DNA of 64,000 nucleotides from Rhizophagus irregularis (lineage: Eukaryota > Glomeromycota > Glomeromycetes > Glomerales > Glomeraceae): assembly GCF_026210795.1 (NCBI RefSeq), contig NC_089448.1, positions 2,728,001 through 2,792,000 on the forward strand, written 5' to 3'. Made by a program: the position numbers and the translations under genes. How positions within the stretch are numbered: the first letter of the stretch is position 1; every line of letters begins with the position of its first letter. Positions 8,435 to 24,180 of this stretch are shown here, one piece after another. A model generated the notes under the pieces. That model saw only the letters and a list, made by a program, of their open reading frames with translations. It was not told the DNA's origin and did not search any database.

Positions 8435-8674
8435 ACTAAAGCTGCCGCCCGAAATTAGGGAATTTTACCATTTGCCGAAACTGAAATGGTAAAATTAATT
8501 TAGGAAAAATACTTATCACCGTTTTCAAAATGGTATGCGCAATATCGATCATGCATTAAAAATGAATACCCGCTAAGAATACCAGGGGATTGTTATCACG
8601 TGAACATTATCCAATTAAATTATTAGATTTTATAATAATTTAGTTTCGTGTTTTATTGTGTTTCAACTTGAATA

Positions 8675-10221
8675 ATGACACTTAAAGAATATCTCATTAG
8701 TATATTTGGCTGTAAGAAATGTTTATACTGTGGAGATGAATTAAGTATTCGAAAAGAATGTACTCATGTGACAAAACTATAAAACCAAGTAAAAAAAATA
8801 GGACAAACAAAGTAAAGGTTGCATACTCTCAGGTTTTTGCATCTGAATTATTTTCCAAACAATATAAATATATCAAAGATAATGTTACTCGTTTCAACTA
8901 TTCTTTGGATCTCACTACAAAGTTCAACTTTACTCTTTGCTCTTCATGTCACAGTTATTTTCAAAGGCAGAGAAAATCCATTATTACTAAAGACACTTCA
9001 AATTCTTTAGAAAATAATAAAACAAATGATGATTGTATTATCTTAGATGAATCTAATGATAATACTAAGCATGAATTTGAAGTAGACGAAAAATCTGAAA
9101 CTGAGCAAATTACTATATCATTTAATTTGGTCATAAAACCTTTTGCTGACCCATCATTACCATCAAAATGGTTAGAAATTGAGACTTCATTATTAGATGA
9201 TATACTTGCAGACATTCACCATTATGTTGGAAAATTAACCGGTGATAGAGAAATTATGCATTCTGATTATTCAGTATCATTTAAGCCAGAAAAATCAGAA
9301 GGGGTTGGAGCACAATTAGAAGACATACAAGATTATAAAAAGTTCCTCTCAGATTACAAAAAACTGGTAGATAAAAAAAAGAACATGTCAATTATAGTTT
9401 CTCTTAAAAAGAAAAGGCAAAAGAGAAAGGTAATTTGCTTTATATTTCTTTATACAGAAAACTATTTTTTATTTATTTTTATTGTTTTAGGAAATCTCAG
9501 ATTCTGAAGAATCCGAAAGTGAGAATATCAAGTTGAATAAAAAAAAAAGTGCAGTACCAAAATTAGAAAATTTTTCTACAATTTTACAACTAGAAGGCCA
9601 TATAATTTGTGAATTGAGAGAGAAATACAAATGCAATCAGCATGATGCATTATGTTTTATTGGCGATGAAAGACATATAAAACTTACAGCTATGCACTTG
9701 CAATGCCGGGCAAAAGAAATTGTAATTATGTTTATAAATTATTATTGACCAATTAAAAAACTAATAATTTTTTTAATAAGTTTTTTTTATTTTAGATTTG
9801 AGGAACCACAGATGATACTCAAATACCGAATTTGCTGATTTTCTCACAATCTAGCAGTACGAAAGGAAATTTCAAGCCACCCACACCTACAGAAACACTT
9901 TCAAGCTCTAATATGACACCAATTTTTTTTACTATGACACCTCAAATGATTTCACTTGCATAAAATTCAAATATGGTTAATACTTCTAATACACCATTGT
10001 TTTCTCCAAAGCTAGCAGTTCCTTCTCTTAACGAATTCTTTACTAAATTGGGTGCGAATGGTAATACAGAAGAATTAGTTGATTTTAAAAATATATTTGA
10101 AAATGAACGGATTACTGTAGATCAAATAAATGATCTTACAAATGCAGAATTTGACCAGTTAGGCGTAAATAAAATTGGGTGGCGAAAAACATTTAGAGCT
10201 GCAGCAAAACGCTATAAATAA
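8675..10221 (+). pseudogene. Cys-motif plus SAM-domain cargo gene of the TIR element, decayed
   Basis: The gene starts at ATG 8675 with MTLKEYLISIFGCKKCLYCG. A frameshift near 8775 leads into a long frame (8758-9432) with FTLCSSCHSYFQRQ, so the N-terminal region holds two CxxC-type pairs that could bind zinc. An intron at about 9430-9490 joins ..KKRQKRK to EISDSEESESE, and a second intron near 9727-9795 leads to a Ser/Thr/Pro-rich exon. The C-terminal exon ends with a SAM-like domain (SLNEFFTKLGANGN, then FDQLGVNKIGWRKTFRAAAK). Two in-frame stops lie upstream of that domain: a TGA at the start of the last exon and a TAA near 9962. I do not know the function. DNA- or RNA-binding through the Cys motif and oligomerisation through SAM are inferences. 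Confidence 0.6.
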
Positions 10222-10349
10222 TTTCAAGAAAATTCATGTTATATTTTCATTTATAATATAATAAATTCACATTTTACAGTTTGACTAATATGAAAATAAA
10301 ATTTCTATATACTCTAGTTTTTACAAAATTTCTTATCTATAAGTTCTAT

Positions 10350-11490
10350 TACATATAAATTGAATTCTTAAAAACTTTCATAGCTGTCTCCAGAGTAATT
10401 TGAGAACATGCTATTAAAAGAGGATATTTAGGATCATTACATGAATGGACAAAGTCCCTGTATTTCTTTAAAAATGATTTTATAATGAAAAAACAAGTTT
10501 TAACTGAGTTAAGATCTGGCGAATAAGAGGTAAGAACTCAACATGACCACTAAATGCTTCAATATATTCTACAAGATCTTGATCATGGTGAATTCACGCA
10601 TTATCAAGTACAAGAACACTTTGTTCACCAGGATATGAATTCATTTGAGGAACCTAATACAAGAAAAAAAAAATAAATATTACAGATAAAATAAGTAAGA
10701 TAATAATTATTATAACAATTCCTAAACTTACCACATTTGAAATAACAAAATTTTTAAAAATTTCTTTCGTTCCATGATGTCTACAGCAATAATATTTTGT
10801 AAAGAAAATGCATTCTTTTTAATTGCAAAAGTATTTTTTAAAGAATAACCATATCTACGAGATAAAGTGCGTTCATCTTTAAAAGCTTCATCCATAAATA
10901 TAAGCTGTTCAGGTTTATAATCACGTCCAACTTTTGCAATAAATATGCTTCTAAGAAGTTCATTCTGTTCATAAACTGCTTGATGTAACTATACAAAAAC
11001 AATAAAAATAAATTACAAAAAAAATAACAAAAAAAGAAAACTACAAATAAATAAATAATAAATTTGCACATACTTTCTTTCTACTAATTCCACAGTAAAC
11101 TAAAGATCGCCAAAGAGTTGGAATAGAAACCAACTTTCCTGTTTGTTGCTCAAGTTCTCCTACTAATTCGTCTAAATACCAATCCACCTTGTCCTTAACT
11201 AACTCTCGTAATATCTAAATTGATAATACAATTAGTAATATTCAAAAGTGAATTGATACACTATTTTACTTATAAATTACCTTCATTTCATTTTGAATTA
11301 GTATTTTATGACGTCCTGGTGGTTTTTGCCATGGATTTACTACCGTTCTCCATTGTACATATATTTGCAAAATATTATCAACAGTGCGTTTGCTAATGTG
11401 TAATAATATGCCAATTTTTATTCGACTATATCCATCATGATGAAGGTAAATAATTCTCCACTTCAGATCCTCACTAAAAGTACGAGCCAT
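10350..11490 (-). pseudogene. Tc1/IS630-type DDE transposase, decayed
   Basis: The start ATG is at 11490-11488. The first exon encodes a helix-turn-helix domain (MARTFSEDLKWRIIYLHHDG, then SKRTVDNILQIYVQW and VVNPWQKPPGRHK). Later exons give VDWYLDELVGELEQQTGKL, then EQLIFMDEAFKDERTL with the first catalytic Asp, and VLVLDNA-x-IHHD with the second. The region expected to carry the third acidic residue (SPDFNPIE type) is out of frame. Introns lie near 11280-11220, 11070-10990 and 10740-10655. There are stops, a deletion before the second Asp block and a frameshift near the end, so the enzyme is dead. The family normally inserts at TA, matching the element's ends. Confidence 0.75.
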
Positions 11491-11734
11491 TGGAAAAAAA
11501 CAATGTCTAAAGTTGAAAAATTTGAATAATCTCAATAATCAGTGAATAATCGCAAACTTTGAATGAAAAAAACTTTCAAATATTACGTAATAACTTAGTC
11601 TATAACTCTATAAAAAGCTGTAGGTGAACCTACTAGTGCAAATAATGCTGGGAAATCTTAAGTATCATTAGACGCATATATTGGATTTAAAATATTCGGC
11701 AAAAAATCAGGTTTTTTTTTTAATCAAATGATCG

Positions 11735-12340
11735 ATACTGCGCATACCATTTTGAAAACGGTGATAATTCTGAAATGCCGAAACTATTCCAAAATTCTGA
11801 TTGGCTGTATAATATCACGTGACTAAAATTAAAATTTTTACCAAAATTATAACTGTATTTTAAATACCATAATTCTGGCTCTGCAGCGATCTTCCTGACA
11901 CATGTAGCTTCGATTTAAGCCTATGTTCGCTTTGTGTAACGTATAGGGCGTCCTTAACGTACAGTAGGGGTGTACAATATTAACGTACAAACTGGCCCGA
12001 GTTTAGGAGTTATGCACTTGCACGTGATAGCGTTAACGTTAACTCCGGCCAGTTCGTACATTAATATCGTACACCCCCACTGTACATTAAGGAATCCCGT
12101 AACGTATATACCATATAAGGAAATTATGCGTCTTTATGCACTAATGTTACACAAAGTGAACATAGGCTTAAAACGAAGCTACACGTGTCAGGAAGATCGC
12201 TACGGAGCCAGAATTATGGAATTAGAATACAGATAAAATTTTAGCAAATTTATAAAGTCATGTGATTTTATAATAGGCCAATCAGAAGTTTCGGACAATT
12301 TCAGGAGTTTTGGAAAGATTTTGGGATTTCGGAAGAATTT
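11735..12340. repeat. Long palindromic segment inside the TIR element
   Basis: The left arm (about 11778-11990) and right arm (about 12050-12330) are inverted copies of each other over roughly 200 bp. Shared blocks include CTGATTGGC, CCATAATTCTGGCTC, GCGATCTTCCTGACAC, AAGCCTATGTTC and GTACAATATTAA/GTACGATATTAA. The two inner halves are separated by a short spacer. It looks like a foldback or MITE nested in, or duplicated from, the end of the larger element. A plus-strand frame at 11970-12236 overlaps it and is judged non-coding. Confidence 0.7.
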
Positions 12341-12449
12341 CAGAATTTTGGAATTAGTTTCGGAAACAAAATTCTGACCGAAATTATTTCGGAATTAGGA
12401 AATAATTTCGGGCGGCAGCTTTATAGTATACCAATTCTTTAATAGAAAA

Positions 12450-13767
12450 AAATACAGTTTTGAGAATACTTTACCTGGAATATTGGCATTTACATTAAAG
12501 CTAATTTTCTATATAAAAAATAAAAAAAAAACTTTTTTATTAAAAAATGTTTTTAAAGAAATTTTGAAATATTTATTTTGAAATTTACCTGAAATATTAG
12601 CATTCACGTTGGAGCTGAATTCCTATATAAAAAATATTTTTTTATTAAAAAACATTTTTAAAAAAATATTTTAAAACTTACTTGGAATATTAGCGTTCAC
12701 ATTAGAGTTGAATTCCTATATAAAAAAATAAAAAAAATTTTTATTAAAAAAAACATTTTTAAAAAAATTTTGAAACATTTGTTTTAAAAACTTACCTAAA
12801 ATATCAGCATTCACATTGGAGTTGAATTCCTATATAAAAAAATAAAAAAAATGTTTTTTTATTAAAAAATATTTTTAAAGAAGTTTCAAAAAATTTATTT
12901 CAAAACTTATCTGAAATATCAGCATTCATGTTGGAGCTGAATTTCTATATAAAAAATAAAAAAACATTTTTTATTAAAAAAAACATTTTTAAAAAAGTTT
13001 TGAAACATTTATTTCAAAATTTACCTAAAATATCAGCATTCACATTGGAGTTGAATTTCTATATAAAAATAAAAAAAAAACATTTTATTAAAAATGTTTT
13101 ATTAAAAAAGTTTCAAAAGTCTTTTTCTAAAATATTAGTATTCACAATAAAATTGAATTTTTAAATAAAAATAATAAAAAAAAAAGTTTTTTTATTAAAA
13201 ATGTTTTATTAAAGAAGTTTCAAAACTTTAATTTTAAAACTTTACTTAGGAAAACGGTATTTATGCTGAAACTGAATTCCTGAATAAAAATAATAAAAAA
13301 AAATGTTTTTTATTAAAAATACTTTATTAAAAAGTTTCAAAACTTTAGTTTCAAAACTTTACCTGAAATATGGTATTTATATTGAAACTGATTTCCTAAA
13401 TAAAAATAATAAAAAATGTATTAAAGAAGTTTCAAAACTTTAGTTCTGAAACTTTAACTAAATCAGTATTCATGCTGGAACTAAATTTCCATATATAAAT
13501 AATAAAAAAATGTTTTTTTAAAACATTTTATTAAAGATAATTTTAAAAATCTTTTGAAATTTTACCTAGGGAAATGGTATTCACGCTAGAACTGATTTTC
13601 TGCAAAAAATATAAAAAAGAAACATTTAACTAAAAATTTTTTAAAACTTTACCTGTAATATTAGTATTTACGCCAGAACTGATTTTCTTCACTAAAAGTA
13701 TAAAAAAGAAACATTTTTTAACATTAAAAAACATTTTTTAAAGAAAGTTTCGAAACTTACTTTCTTA
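12450..13767 (-). repeat. Tandem array of about 12 units with 34-nt cores between splice-like sites
   Basis: On the minus strand each unit of about 95-130 bp reads TATAG, a conserved core (for example GAATTCAGCTCC followed by AATGCTAATATTTCAG), then GTAA and a variable A/T spacer. In at least eight of the units checked the core between TATAG (or its variant) and GTAA is exactly 34 nt; one is 33 nt, and a few have lost the donor or acceptor. The core is better conserved than the spacer. Frame 0 of the core is open (EFSSNVNANIS), but the two other frames contain a stop, and 34 is not a multiple of three, so successive cores cannot be joined into one frame. Whether these are used as exons cannot be seen from the sequence. 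Confidence 0.7.
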
Positions 13768-18510: not shown

Positions 18511-18699
18511 TGTATACTGTTCGCAAAATATAGATACGGTATATTAAATTTATACGTCTATAATGTATCATTCATTTTTGCTATAGATATGGTATATTAA
18601 ATCATACGTTTATAACGTATTTTACTGTGAATAATGGATACAGTATATTAAAATCCTTATATTCTTATATTCTACTATTTGATCTACCATTGTGCGAAC

Positions 18700-19452
18700 T
18701 TTTTTTGCTATTGTTTGAAATATAGCATTGTTTTTTTAAAGCAATCAATTAAACAATGGCAAGAAAAATTCGCTCAAACTTTTCTTGTTATTGTTCAAAA
18801 TATACTATTATTTTTTTTAAAGTAATTGATTAAACAATGGCAAGAAAAATTCGCTCAAACTTTTCTTGCTATTGTTTAAAGTATACCATTATTTTTTTAA
18901 AGCAATTGATTAAACAATGACAAGAAAATTTTATGTGAACTTTTCTTGCTATTATTCAAAGTATACCATTGTTTTTTTTCCAAAGTAATTGATTAAACAA
19001 TGGCAAGAAAAATTCACTCAAACATTTCTTGCCATTGTTTAACTCAAGTCTATTATTGTTTTTTTTTAAAGCAATTGATTAAATAATGGTAAAAAAATTT
19101 CATATGAACTTTTCTTGCTATTGTTCGAAGCATACCATTATTTTTTTTAAAGCAATCAATTAAACAATGACAAGAAAATTCGCATGAATTTTTCTTGCTA
19201 TTGTTCAAAGTATACCATTATTTTTTTAAAGCAATTGATTAAACAATTATAAGAAAAATTCATATGAACTTTTCTTGCTATTGTTCGAAATATAGCATTA
19301 TTTTTTTAAAGCAATTGATTAAACAATGGCAAGAAAAGTTTGCGAAACTTTTCTTACCGTTGTTTAAAGTATACTGTTGTTTTTTCAAAGTAATTGATTA
19401 AATAATGGCAAGAAAAATTCACTTGAACATTTCTTGCCATTGTTTAACTCAA
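18700..19452. repeat. Array of nine hairpin units, about 81-bp period
   Basis: Each unit contains AACAATGGCAAGAAAA, a spacer of about 10 bp, then TTTTCTTGC(C/T)ATTGTT, which is the complement of the first block, so every unit can form a stem of about 16 bp. Between hairpins lies an A/T stretch with AAAGCAATTGATT. Units begin near 18751, 18832, 18911, 18995, 19078, 19161, 19240, 19319 and 19398. The last hairpin ends within a few bases of the point where MULE transposase similarity starts. Confidence 0.85.
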
Positions 19453-22323: not shown

Positions 22324-23540
22324 TCATTAACTGTTTTCTTAATATTATTCAGAAATTTATTTTGAAAATCACTAAAATTTCTATTGGTTATGTGCAACCA
22401 TTCAATTCCTTCTGAATTAAGATTATAATTAAAAATTTGTTATATTAAATTTTTAAAGTATATTTTTTAGGATTTTGAATACAAAGGAATAAGTTCTAAA
22501 AAAACTGTTTTCTTAATATTATCCAGAAATTTGTTTTGAAAATCACTAAAATTTCTATTGGCTATGTATAACTATTCAATTCCTTCTGCTGAATTAAGAT
22601 TATAATTAAAAATTTGCCATATTAAATTTTTAAAGTACATTTTTCAGGATTTTGAATACAAAGGAATAAGTTCTAAAAAAACTATTTTCTTAATATTATT
22701 CAGAAATTTGTTTTGAAAAATTACTAAAATTTCTGTTACTAGTTGTATACAATTATTCAAAGTATATTTTTTTCAGGATTTTGAATACAAAGAAATAAGC
22801 ATTTTAATTCTTTTAAGAAAACTGTTTTCCAGAAATTTGTTTTGAAAAATCACTAAAATTTTTACTAGCTGTATACAATTATTCAATAAATTAAAATCAT
22901 AATTAAAAATTTGCCATATTAAATTTTTAAAGTATATTTTTCAGGATTTTGAATACAAAGAAATAAGTTCTAAGAAAACTGTTTTCTTAATATTATCCAG
23001 AAATTTGTTTTGAAAAATCACTAAAATTTCTGTTACTAGCTGTATACAATTATTCAATAAATTAAATCATAATTAAAAATTTGCCATATTAAATTTTTAA
23101 AGTATATTTTTCAGGATTTTGAATACAAAAAAATAAGCATTTTAATTTTTTTAAGAAAACTGTTTTCTTAATATTATCCAGAAATTTGTTTTGAAAAATC
23201 ATTAAAGTTTCTGTTACTAACTGTATACAACTATTCAATTTTTTTTCTTAAATTAAGATCATAATTAAAAATTTGCTATATTAAATTTTTAAAGTACATT
23301 TTTCAGAATTTTAAATATAAAGAAATAAGTATTTTGATTTTTCTAAGAAACCTGTTTTCTTAATATTATCCAGAAATTTGTTTTGAAAAATCACCAAAGT
23401 TTCTGTTGGCTATATGCAACTATTCAATTTCTTCTGCTGAATTAAGATTATAATTAAAAATTTGCCACATTAAATTTTTTAAAGCACTTTTTTTAGGATT
23501 TGAATATGAAGAAATAAGCATTTTAATTCTTCTAAGAAAT
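22324..23540. repeat. Satellite array, about seven copies of a 125-190 bp unit
   Basis: Units begin with CTGTTTTCTTAATATTAT (near 22330, 22505, 22682, 22978, 23160 and 23350, with a shortened copy near 22815). Each continues with CAGAAATTTGTTTTGAAAA, CACTAAAATTTCT, TTGCCATATTAAATTTTTAA and CAGGATTTTGAATACAAAG. Copies differ by small changes and deletions. No coding potential. Confidence 0.85.
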
Positions 23541-23784
23541 TTCAATTTAATTTTATTTAAATTATAATAAAAATATAATAATTTTTGATAAAATAAATTA
23601 TTATTTTTTTTATCTTTTTATATTAATATTTTAAAAATATATACTTTAAGAAAAAGTTTATTAACTTTTAATATTATTTATTATAATCTATATCATTTAA
23701 TTTTTTAAAGTTATTTATACTATTTATAAAATTAAATAAAAATTATACTTTTATACATTTTTCAATAAGAAAATAATAGATTTT

Positions 23785-24180
23785 AATAAAATATAAATTA
23801 TAAAAAAAAATCTGAATATACTTTAATATTTTTTAAAAAAAGACCCATATTTTTAATATTATATATAATTTATGTTGGTTTTTATAAATAGTTGTAAATC
23901 CAAAAGTTAAGTAAATAATAAAATATAAATTATAAAAAAAATCTGAATATACTTTAATATTTTTTTAAAAAAGGCCCATATTTTTAATATTATATATAAT
24001 TTATGTTGGTTTTTATAAATAGTTGTAAATCCAAAAGTTAAGTAAATAATAAAATATAAATTATAAAAAAAAATCTGAATATACTTTAATATTTTTTTAA
24101 AAAAGGCCCATATTTTTAATATTATATATAATTTATGTTGCTTTTCATAAATAGTTGTAAATTCAAAAGTTAAGTAATTA
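23785..24180. repeat. Three near-identical tandem copies of about 130 bp
   Basis: The copies share AAATCTGAATATACTTTAAT, CCCATATTTTTAATATTAT, AATTTATGTTG and TAGTTGTAAAT-CAAAAGTTAAGT. They differ at only a few positions and in poly-A length, so the duplication is young compared with the neighbouring satellite. A diverged copy lies near 25185-25270. Confidence 0.85.

What the first reader, a model, noticed from the sequence alone, without database searches (positions are those of the whole stretch)
8438..12430. A Tc1-type TIR element carrying a SAM-domain cargo gene
Seen: matching TIRs with TA at both ends, a minus-strand Tc1/IS630-type transposase relic and, convergent with it, a multi-exon plus-strand gene with CxxC motifs and a C-terminal SAM domain. 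Tc1/mariner elements normally carry only a transposase. Inference: either the element captured a host SAM-domain gene, or this family needs a second protein. SAM domains are hugely expanded in these fungi, so transposon capture could be one route of that expansion.
Basis: partly seen in the sequence, partly recalled or inferred. Interest (0 to 1): 0.75.

Follow-up and report, generated by a model that had tools for sequence, protein, structure and literature searches.

The report
Two-gene jumping DNA in root fungi
A jumping-DNA family of root-symbiotic fungi, from a group that normally carries a single gene, has a conserved second gene with protein-sticking domains, and the copy found here had landed inside an older, unrelated DNA repeat.

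Summary
The outer 19-bp TIRs belong to a foldback MITE: 18 of 20 fetched copies read through this site without insert or gap. Inside it, flanked by duplicated TA, sits a separate 3,249-bp element (8516-11764) with its own TIRs. It carries both genes, convergent; both are broken here.

The SAM gene is not a one-off capture. The element's TIR motif brackets both genes at 11 of 21 loci tested. Distances of the two proteins correlate (r = 0.885, 0 of 10,000 permutations). dN/dS between subfamilies is below 0.45 in 9 of 12 SAM-gene pairs. Gene models of R. clarus and Glomus cerebriforme show the same convergent pair.

The second protein has a Cys cluster, a PB1-like fold and a SAM domain; I infer an oligomerising accessory factor of transposition. 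Of 26 SAM_1 matches, 14 belong to or adjoin this family. Precedent: ciliate TBE/Tec. New variant of a known kind.

The parts
8516..11764 (.). Two-gene Tc1/mariner element, degenerate copy, 3,249 bp
   Evidence: TIR motif at both ends and TA duplication; empty site in 18 of 20 MITE copies
8514..8515 (.). TA target-site duplication, left
11765..11766 (.). TA target-site duplication, right
8516..8541 (+). Left TIR of the two-gene element (26 bp, TCACCGTTTTCAAAATGGTATGCGCA, identical to the right TIR; weaker inverted similarity runs to about 8562)
11739..11764 (-). Right TIR of the two-gene element
8675..9429 (+). Accessory (SAM) gene, exon 1: Cys cluster and PB1-like domain; frame broken in this copy
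   Evidence: exon end read from the sequence
9491..9721 (+). Accessory gene, exon 2: conserved region with C..H..C and WAKEI motifs
   Evidence: exon ends read from the sequence
9796..10221 (+). Accessory gene, exon 3: linker and C-terminal SAM domain; two in-frame stops in this copy
10349..11490 (-). Tc1/IS630-type transposase gene (HTH exon, then DDE exons), relic with stops, frame breaks and a missing stretch
8437..8515 (+). Left part of the foldback MITE that hosts the element (TIR 8439-8457)
11765..12423 (+). Right part of the foldback MITE (internal palindrome arms 11863-12223, TIR 12403-12421)

Best explanation
Shown: the segment 8516-11764 is a decayed member of a Tc1/mariner (DD34E) transposon family of arbuscular mycorrhizal fungi that carries two convergent genes inside TIRs of the form TA-TCRCCRTTTTCA: a transposase and a second gene for a protein with an N-terminal Cys cluster, a PB1-like beta-grasp domain, a conserved Cys/His motif and a C-terminal SAM domain. 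It transposed into an older foldback MITE and duplicated TA. Inferred: the second protein is a transposon-encoded accessory factor kept by selection for the element's own propagation. The Cys cluster would bind DNA or the transposase, while PB1 and SAM, both head-to-tail interaction domains, would build an oligomeric scaffold that assembles or stabilises the end complexes, or shields the element from host silencing. I put about 0.95 on the two-gene family and the nesting, and about 0.5 on a direct role in transposition.
Confidence: 0.72

Rival explanations
1. Old passenger: the SAM gene was captured once by an ancestor of the family and has been carried since, under selection for a benefit to the fungus or to its own spread, with no role in transposition.
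For: The SAM protein evolves faster than the transposase; 21 of 77 transposase loci show no SAM-family gene; in the same fungus Mutator-like elements are reported next to expanded gene families such as AGO (PMC8647823, passages seen).
Against: A passenger should be lost in some successful lineages, yet the pair persists in the same convergent order in subfamilies whose SAM proteins are only about 23-44% identical per aligned piece. Near-identical, recently moved copies carry both genes. dN/dS of the SAM gene is higher within subfamilies than between them in most pairs, which suggests weak or no selection on fixed copies for a host function.
Confidence: 0.22
2. Anti-silencing or self-regulation: the second protein forms PB1/SAM assemblies that counter RNAi or DNA methylation, or titrate the transposase, rather than taking part in the cut-and-paste reaction.
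For: Two head-to-tail interaction-type domains in one protein would suit condensate formation; recently expanded TcMar elements of this fungus are reported to include numerous copies with low methylation (PMC8647823, passage seen).
Against: No direct evidence; the passage does not concern these elements in particular.
Confidence: 0.22
3. Target preference: the SAM genes are an ordinary host family and Tc1-type elements merely insert beside them.
For: 12 of 70 SAM-family loci have no transposase found nearby; the public annotation lists a member as an ordinary uncharacterized protein (P0175, tag OCT59_018968).
Against: TIRs lie outside both genes at 11 of 21 loci, orientation is always convergent (58 of 58), distances co-vary, and the window copy moved into a MITE with both genes.
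Confidence: 0.02
4. One reading: one element bounded by the 19-bp outer TIRs that captured a SAM gene.
For: The outer TIRs do enclose everything in this window.
Against: None of 20 fetched copies of the outer-TIR element shows the SAM gene, and 18 of 20 read straight through the site.
Confidence: 0.01

Closest known systems
TBE (Oxytricha) and Tec (Euplotes; host recalled) elements of ciliates
   Same: Tc1/mariner elements with a DD34E transposase plus further proteins; the TBE accessory ORFs are reported under purifying selection and include a zinc-finger protein; one Tec ORF is on the opposite strand (PMC12242761 section 20 and PMC7325037 section 8, both sections read).
   Different: TBE carries a 57-kDa zinc-finger/kinase protein and a 22-kDa protein, Tec a site-specific recombinase, and TBE TIRs carry telomere-like sequence; here there is one accessory gene with PB1-like and SAM domains, fungal hosts, and TIRs TCRCCRTTTTCA.
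Single-gene Tc1-like elements (Tc1, Sleeping Beauty, fungal relatives)
   Same: DDE_3 catalytic domain with 34 residues between the second D and E, N-terminal HTH, TA duplication, TIRs.
   Different: A second convergent gene is retained across subfamilies.
Two-gene cut-and-paste superfamilies with an accessory protein (PIF/Harbinger, MuDR, CACTA; recalled)
   Same: A separate transposon gene for a non-catalytic partner (recalled).
   Different: Unrelated transposases and partner domains (recalled, not tested here).
MUSTANG B genes of plants
   Same: A PB1 domain joined to transposon-derived protein sequence (PMC3435246, passages seen).
   Different: Domesticated MULE-derived host genes, not a mobile element's second gene.

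Membership tests
Tc1/mariner (IS630/Tc1) superfamily | DDE catalytic triad with DD34E-type spacing | tested here: met
   34 residues between second D and E in L018, L055 and L057; DDE_3 E = 1.1e-25 (L018) and 1.8e-26 (L055); the window copy itself is broken
Tc1/mariner (IS630/Tc1) superfamily | N-terminal HTH/paired-like DNA-binding domain | tested here: met
   HTH_23 E = 5.3e-8 in the window exon, 7e-8 in L018; in L055 it is below cut-off (21.5 against 24.6 bits), and HTH_SB is below its cut-off throughout
Tc1/mariner (IS630/Tc1) superfamily | TA target-site duplication | tested here: met
   Empty site CTTA/ATTC in 18 of 20 MITE copies, duplicated TA around the window's element
Tc1/mariner (IS630/Tc1) superfamily | Terminal inverted repeats flanking the coding part | tested here: met
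   11 of 21 two-gene loci have both TIR motifs in range
Tc1/mariner (IS630/Tc1) superfamily | Only one gene, the transposase (usual, not strictly defining) | tested here: not met
   Second convergent gene at 56 of 77 transposase loci, 58 of 70 SAM-family loci
Ciliate TBE elements | Telomere-like repeats in the TIRs | tested here: not met
   TIRs begin TCRCCRTTTTCA
Ciliate TBE elements | Accessory zinc-finger/kinase protein | tested here: not met
   Pfam finds no kinase domain in P0005 or P0175 at E up to 0.05
SAM-domain proteins | SAM domain by sequence and fold | tested here: met
   SAM_1 above cut-off in the window exon (23.9 bits) and in P0175 (31 bits); P0005 is below cut-off by sequence (16.5 bits) but its model matches SAM folds, no match at E <= 0.001
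PB1-domain proteins | PB1 beta-grasp fold | tested here: inconclusive
MITE (outer repeat) | Short, no coding capacity, TIRs, many copies | tested here: met
   About 0.5-1.0 kb between ends in 17 of 20 fetched copies; 29 left-end and 37 right-end matches, the window's own included and some right-end matches being pieces of one copy; coding capacity was judged by size, not searched

The most novel reading that the evidence does not exclude
A whole lineage of Tc1/mariner transposons in Glomeromycotina has become a two-protein system: the transposase depends on a Cys-PB1-SAM scaffold protein that polymerises through two head-to-tail domains to assemble the ends or to form a protective body, and this transposon gene, counted as host genes in public annotation, makes up a large share of the SAM genes of arbuscular mycorrhizal fungi.
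Probability: 0.35. Interest if true: 0.85.

Novelty: new variant of a known kind. Interest (0 to 1): 0.72.

Why it matters
Tc1/mariner elements are the textbook one-protein transposons; a 2025 paper calls accessory proteins in the ciliate TBE elements surprising for the superfamily (PMC12242761 section 20, read). A second, unrelated example in fungi, with dozens of copies in one genome, would let the need for partner proteins be tested. It also bears on the genome biology of mycorrhizal fungi: some SAM genes listed as host genes are transposon genes, and repeat consensus sequences with gene-related domains were filtered out of the repeat library of a reference assembly (PMC10234402 section 9, read), a step that would be expected to drop this family (inference).

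Tried and rejected
Rejected: the 19-bp outer TIRs as ends of the gene-bearing element. Rejected: chance neighbourhood of SAM genes and transposases.

Led nowhere: phmmer of the L055 transposase against PDB sequences gave 0 matches at E <= 0.001. The full-length model of P0005 is poor outside two domains (mean pLDDT 54), so its other parts were not interpreted; the N-terminal Cys-rich domain of the second model (residues 1-105) was not searched alone, so its fold is untested. Foldseek gave no PDB match at E <= 0.001 for either model; the PB1 assignment rests on the VIA-align ranking. All listed SAM-family homologues with a species name are from fungi that I recall as Glomeromycotina; unnamed metagenome proteins were also found, so absence elsewhere is not shown. 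Whether basidiomycete relatives of the transposase (Mycena, Candolleomyces, Tilletia, best 120 of 227 listed) have a second gene could not be tested. Ten literature searches, of an open-licence library only, listed no paper that I could recognise by title as on a SAM-gene-bearing Tc1/mariner element; several listed only the top of longer results (20 of 153, 20 of 1,051, 12 of 45, 10 of 29), so absence from print is not shown.

Counts: 64 SAM-family loci come, six more. The 77 transposase loci come plus four places picked by eye, whose list was cut. Three of the 54 pairs have gaps of 3.3, 4.7 and 5.2 kb; two transposase loci (C18, C29) are each counted as neighbour of two SAM loci, which may be parts of one split gene. 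Genome searches score only the best candidates, so counts of loci are lower bounds.

Full report
What is there. The window is G000:C20:2728001-2792000 of a 146.7-Mb, 32-contig genome. Contig lengths of C1, C7 and C13 equal those given for proteins of Rhizophagus irregularis with OCT59 tags (P0197, P0175, P0219), so I take the organism to be R. irregularis (inference). But searching the genome with the left end gave 29 matches and with the right end 37, the window's own included. I fetched 20 of the 28 other left-end copies; in 17 of the 20 the two ends lie only about 0.5-1.0 kb apart, and window 8437-8515 continues directly into 11765-12423. With the window's flanks joined in a script, all 20 align across the site, 18 of them without a gap at the junction CTTA|ATTC (L047 and L053 have local gaps there). 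The outer repeat is thus a foldback MITE (long internal inverted arms), and everything between 8516 and 11764 was inserted into it with duplication of TA.

The inserted element. Its ends are perfect 26-bp inverted repeats, TCACCGTTTTCAAAATGGTATGCGCA, part of a longer 51-column match at 92%. It contains a plus-strand three-exon gene (8675-9429, 9491-9721, 9796-10221) and a minus-strand Tc1-type transposase gene (about 11490-10349); their stop codons lie about 130 bp apart. Both are broken in this copy: the SAM gene by a frame break in exon 1 and two in-frame stops in exon 3, the transposase by stops, frame breaks and a missing stretch.

The family. DNA of the SAM gene finds relatives at 68-96% identity, and DNA of the transposase finds most of the same loci. 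By protein, the SAM-gene family has 64 loci together. Of these, 54 have a transposase locus (77 in all: plus four places) within 6 kb, 54 of 54 convergent, 51 of them within 2 kb; 10 have none. A third query from a distant subfamily added six loci, four of them beside transposases that had lacked a partner, again convergent: 58 of 70 in total, with 21 of 77 transposase loci still without a SAM-family hit. Only 0.24% of the genome lies within 2 kb of such a transposase. Two transposase loci are counted with two SAM pieces each.

Element boundaries. A motif TATCRCCRTTTTCA (two mismatches allowed; 1.95 matches per shuffled 64 kb) was sought outside both genes at 21 two-gene loci. Eleven have it on both sides in the right orientation, giving elements of 3.2-4.5 kb; a twelfth (L057) has its second end one base beyond the search bound. 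Of the other nine, four have one end in range (the two truncated copies in L015, L023, and L030, whose fetched stretch is cut) and five none (L019, L021, L022, L028, L058; L028 has one end farther out). L055 and L056 are 99.0% identical over 3,363 bp from TA to TA, with different flanks: recent movement of both genes as a unit.

Shared history and selection. For 18 elements, protein distances for the SAM gene and the transposase correlate with r = 0.885 over 151 pairs, reached in 0 of 10,000 permutations; the two trees share the main groups but place L020, L057 and the decayed L021/L022 differently. Nei-Gojobori dN/dS between subfamilies: SAM gene 0.34 (L017/L018), 0.26 (L015b/L018), 0.28 (L015b/L017), 0.39 (L018/L019), 0.38 (L018/L020), 0.38 and 0.39 (L028 against L029 and L030), 0.43 (L029/L060), 0.41 (L018/L060), 0.52 (L018/L055), 0.73 (L055/L057), 0.79 (L031/L057); transposase 0.14-0.28 for the first ten of these pairs, 0.37 and 0.42 for the last two. 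Within subfamilies the SAM gene gives 0.59-1.03 in 7 of 8 pairs and the transposase 0.34-1.30 in 7 pairs; the eighth SAM pair, L055/L056, gives 3.5 on almost no change. This is the pattern expected of transposon genes: constraint along the lines that keep moving, more relaxed change in fixed copies. dS exceeds 1 in several pairs and the alignment went through one reference protein, so the exact values are rough.

Other species. Homologues listed with species names come from Rhizophagus irregularis, R. diaphanus, R. clarus, Glomus cerebriforme, Funneliformis, Dentiscutata and Cetraspora, all Glomeromycotina (recalled). Gene models betray the arrangement outside this genome. The G. cerebriforme SAM protein P0010 ends in 18 residues that match the antisense translation of the transposase (83%, E = 1.5e-4; 1 of 103 SAM-family proteins tested). 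The R. clarus transposase model P0059 ends in about 70 residues that match the antisense translation of the SAM gene (56%, E = 2.6e-22; 1 of 120 tested). R. clarus P0061 (transposase, RclHR1_32280001) and P0206 (SAM-family, RclHR1_32280003) both come from contigs of 4,352 bp and have close tags; the DNA itself was not seen.

Effect on the SAM repertoire. Pfam SAM_1 finds 26 matches in the six-frame genome at E <= 0.01, all above cut-off; 14 lie in SAM-family loci or beside these transposases, 13 of them within 2.5 kb of a transposase. A member (P0175) is listed in public annotation as uncharacterized protein OCT59_018968. [quoted passage not shown] a related TE study removed expanded gene families (Sel1, BTB, Kelch, kinase and TPR are its examples; PMC11075540 section 5, read). 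Such steps would be expected to hide a transposon with a domain-bearing second gene (inference).

What is known. Tc1/mariner elements typically encode only a transposase; the ciliate TBE elements with two further proteins are called surprising for that reason (PMC12242761 section 20, read), and Tec elements have three ORFs, one in complement (PMC7325037 section 8, read). The present family works like those in having a conserved non-transposase gene, but is not a member: TIRs, partner domains and hosts differ. I found no description of it in the listings of ten searches of an open-licence library. I therefore call it a new variant of a known kind.

Noticed in passing
window 8437-8515 and 11765-12423: A foldback MITE family (TIR AAGCTGCCGCCCGAAATTA, TA next to the ends, large internal palindrome), 29 left-end and 37 right-end matches; its ends do not resemble those of the two-gene element, so another transposase probably moves it.
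   Followed up: partly
window 12471-13416: AT-rich tandem array, period about 114 bp, 8.5 copies, starting about 50 bp after the MITE; similar repeats lie in L052 between the two halves of another copy of the same MITE.
   Followed up: no
window 18696-19444, 22329-23539 and 23784-24177: Further tandem arrays (80 bp x 9.2; units of about 130-190 bp; 131 bp x 3.0 at 97% matches).
   Followed up: no
L015 1543-6877 (C7): Two partial copies of the two-gene element lie head to head, making a large imperfect palindrome; one lacks its SAM-side end, the other its transposase-side end.
   Followed up: partly
G000 C1:417134-423469: A SAM gene and a transposase of the L055 subfamily, with several kilobases between SAM exons, probably a nested insertion.
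   Followed up: no
G000 C16:1862058-1863090: A SAM_1 match lies convergent to a divergent transposase although no SAM-family query found it, so further subfamilies probably exist.
   Followed up: no
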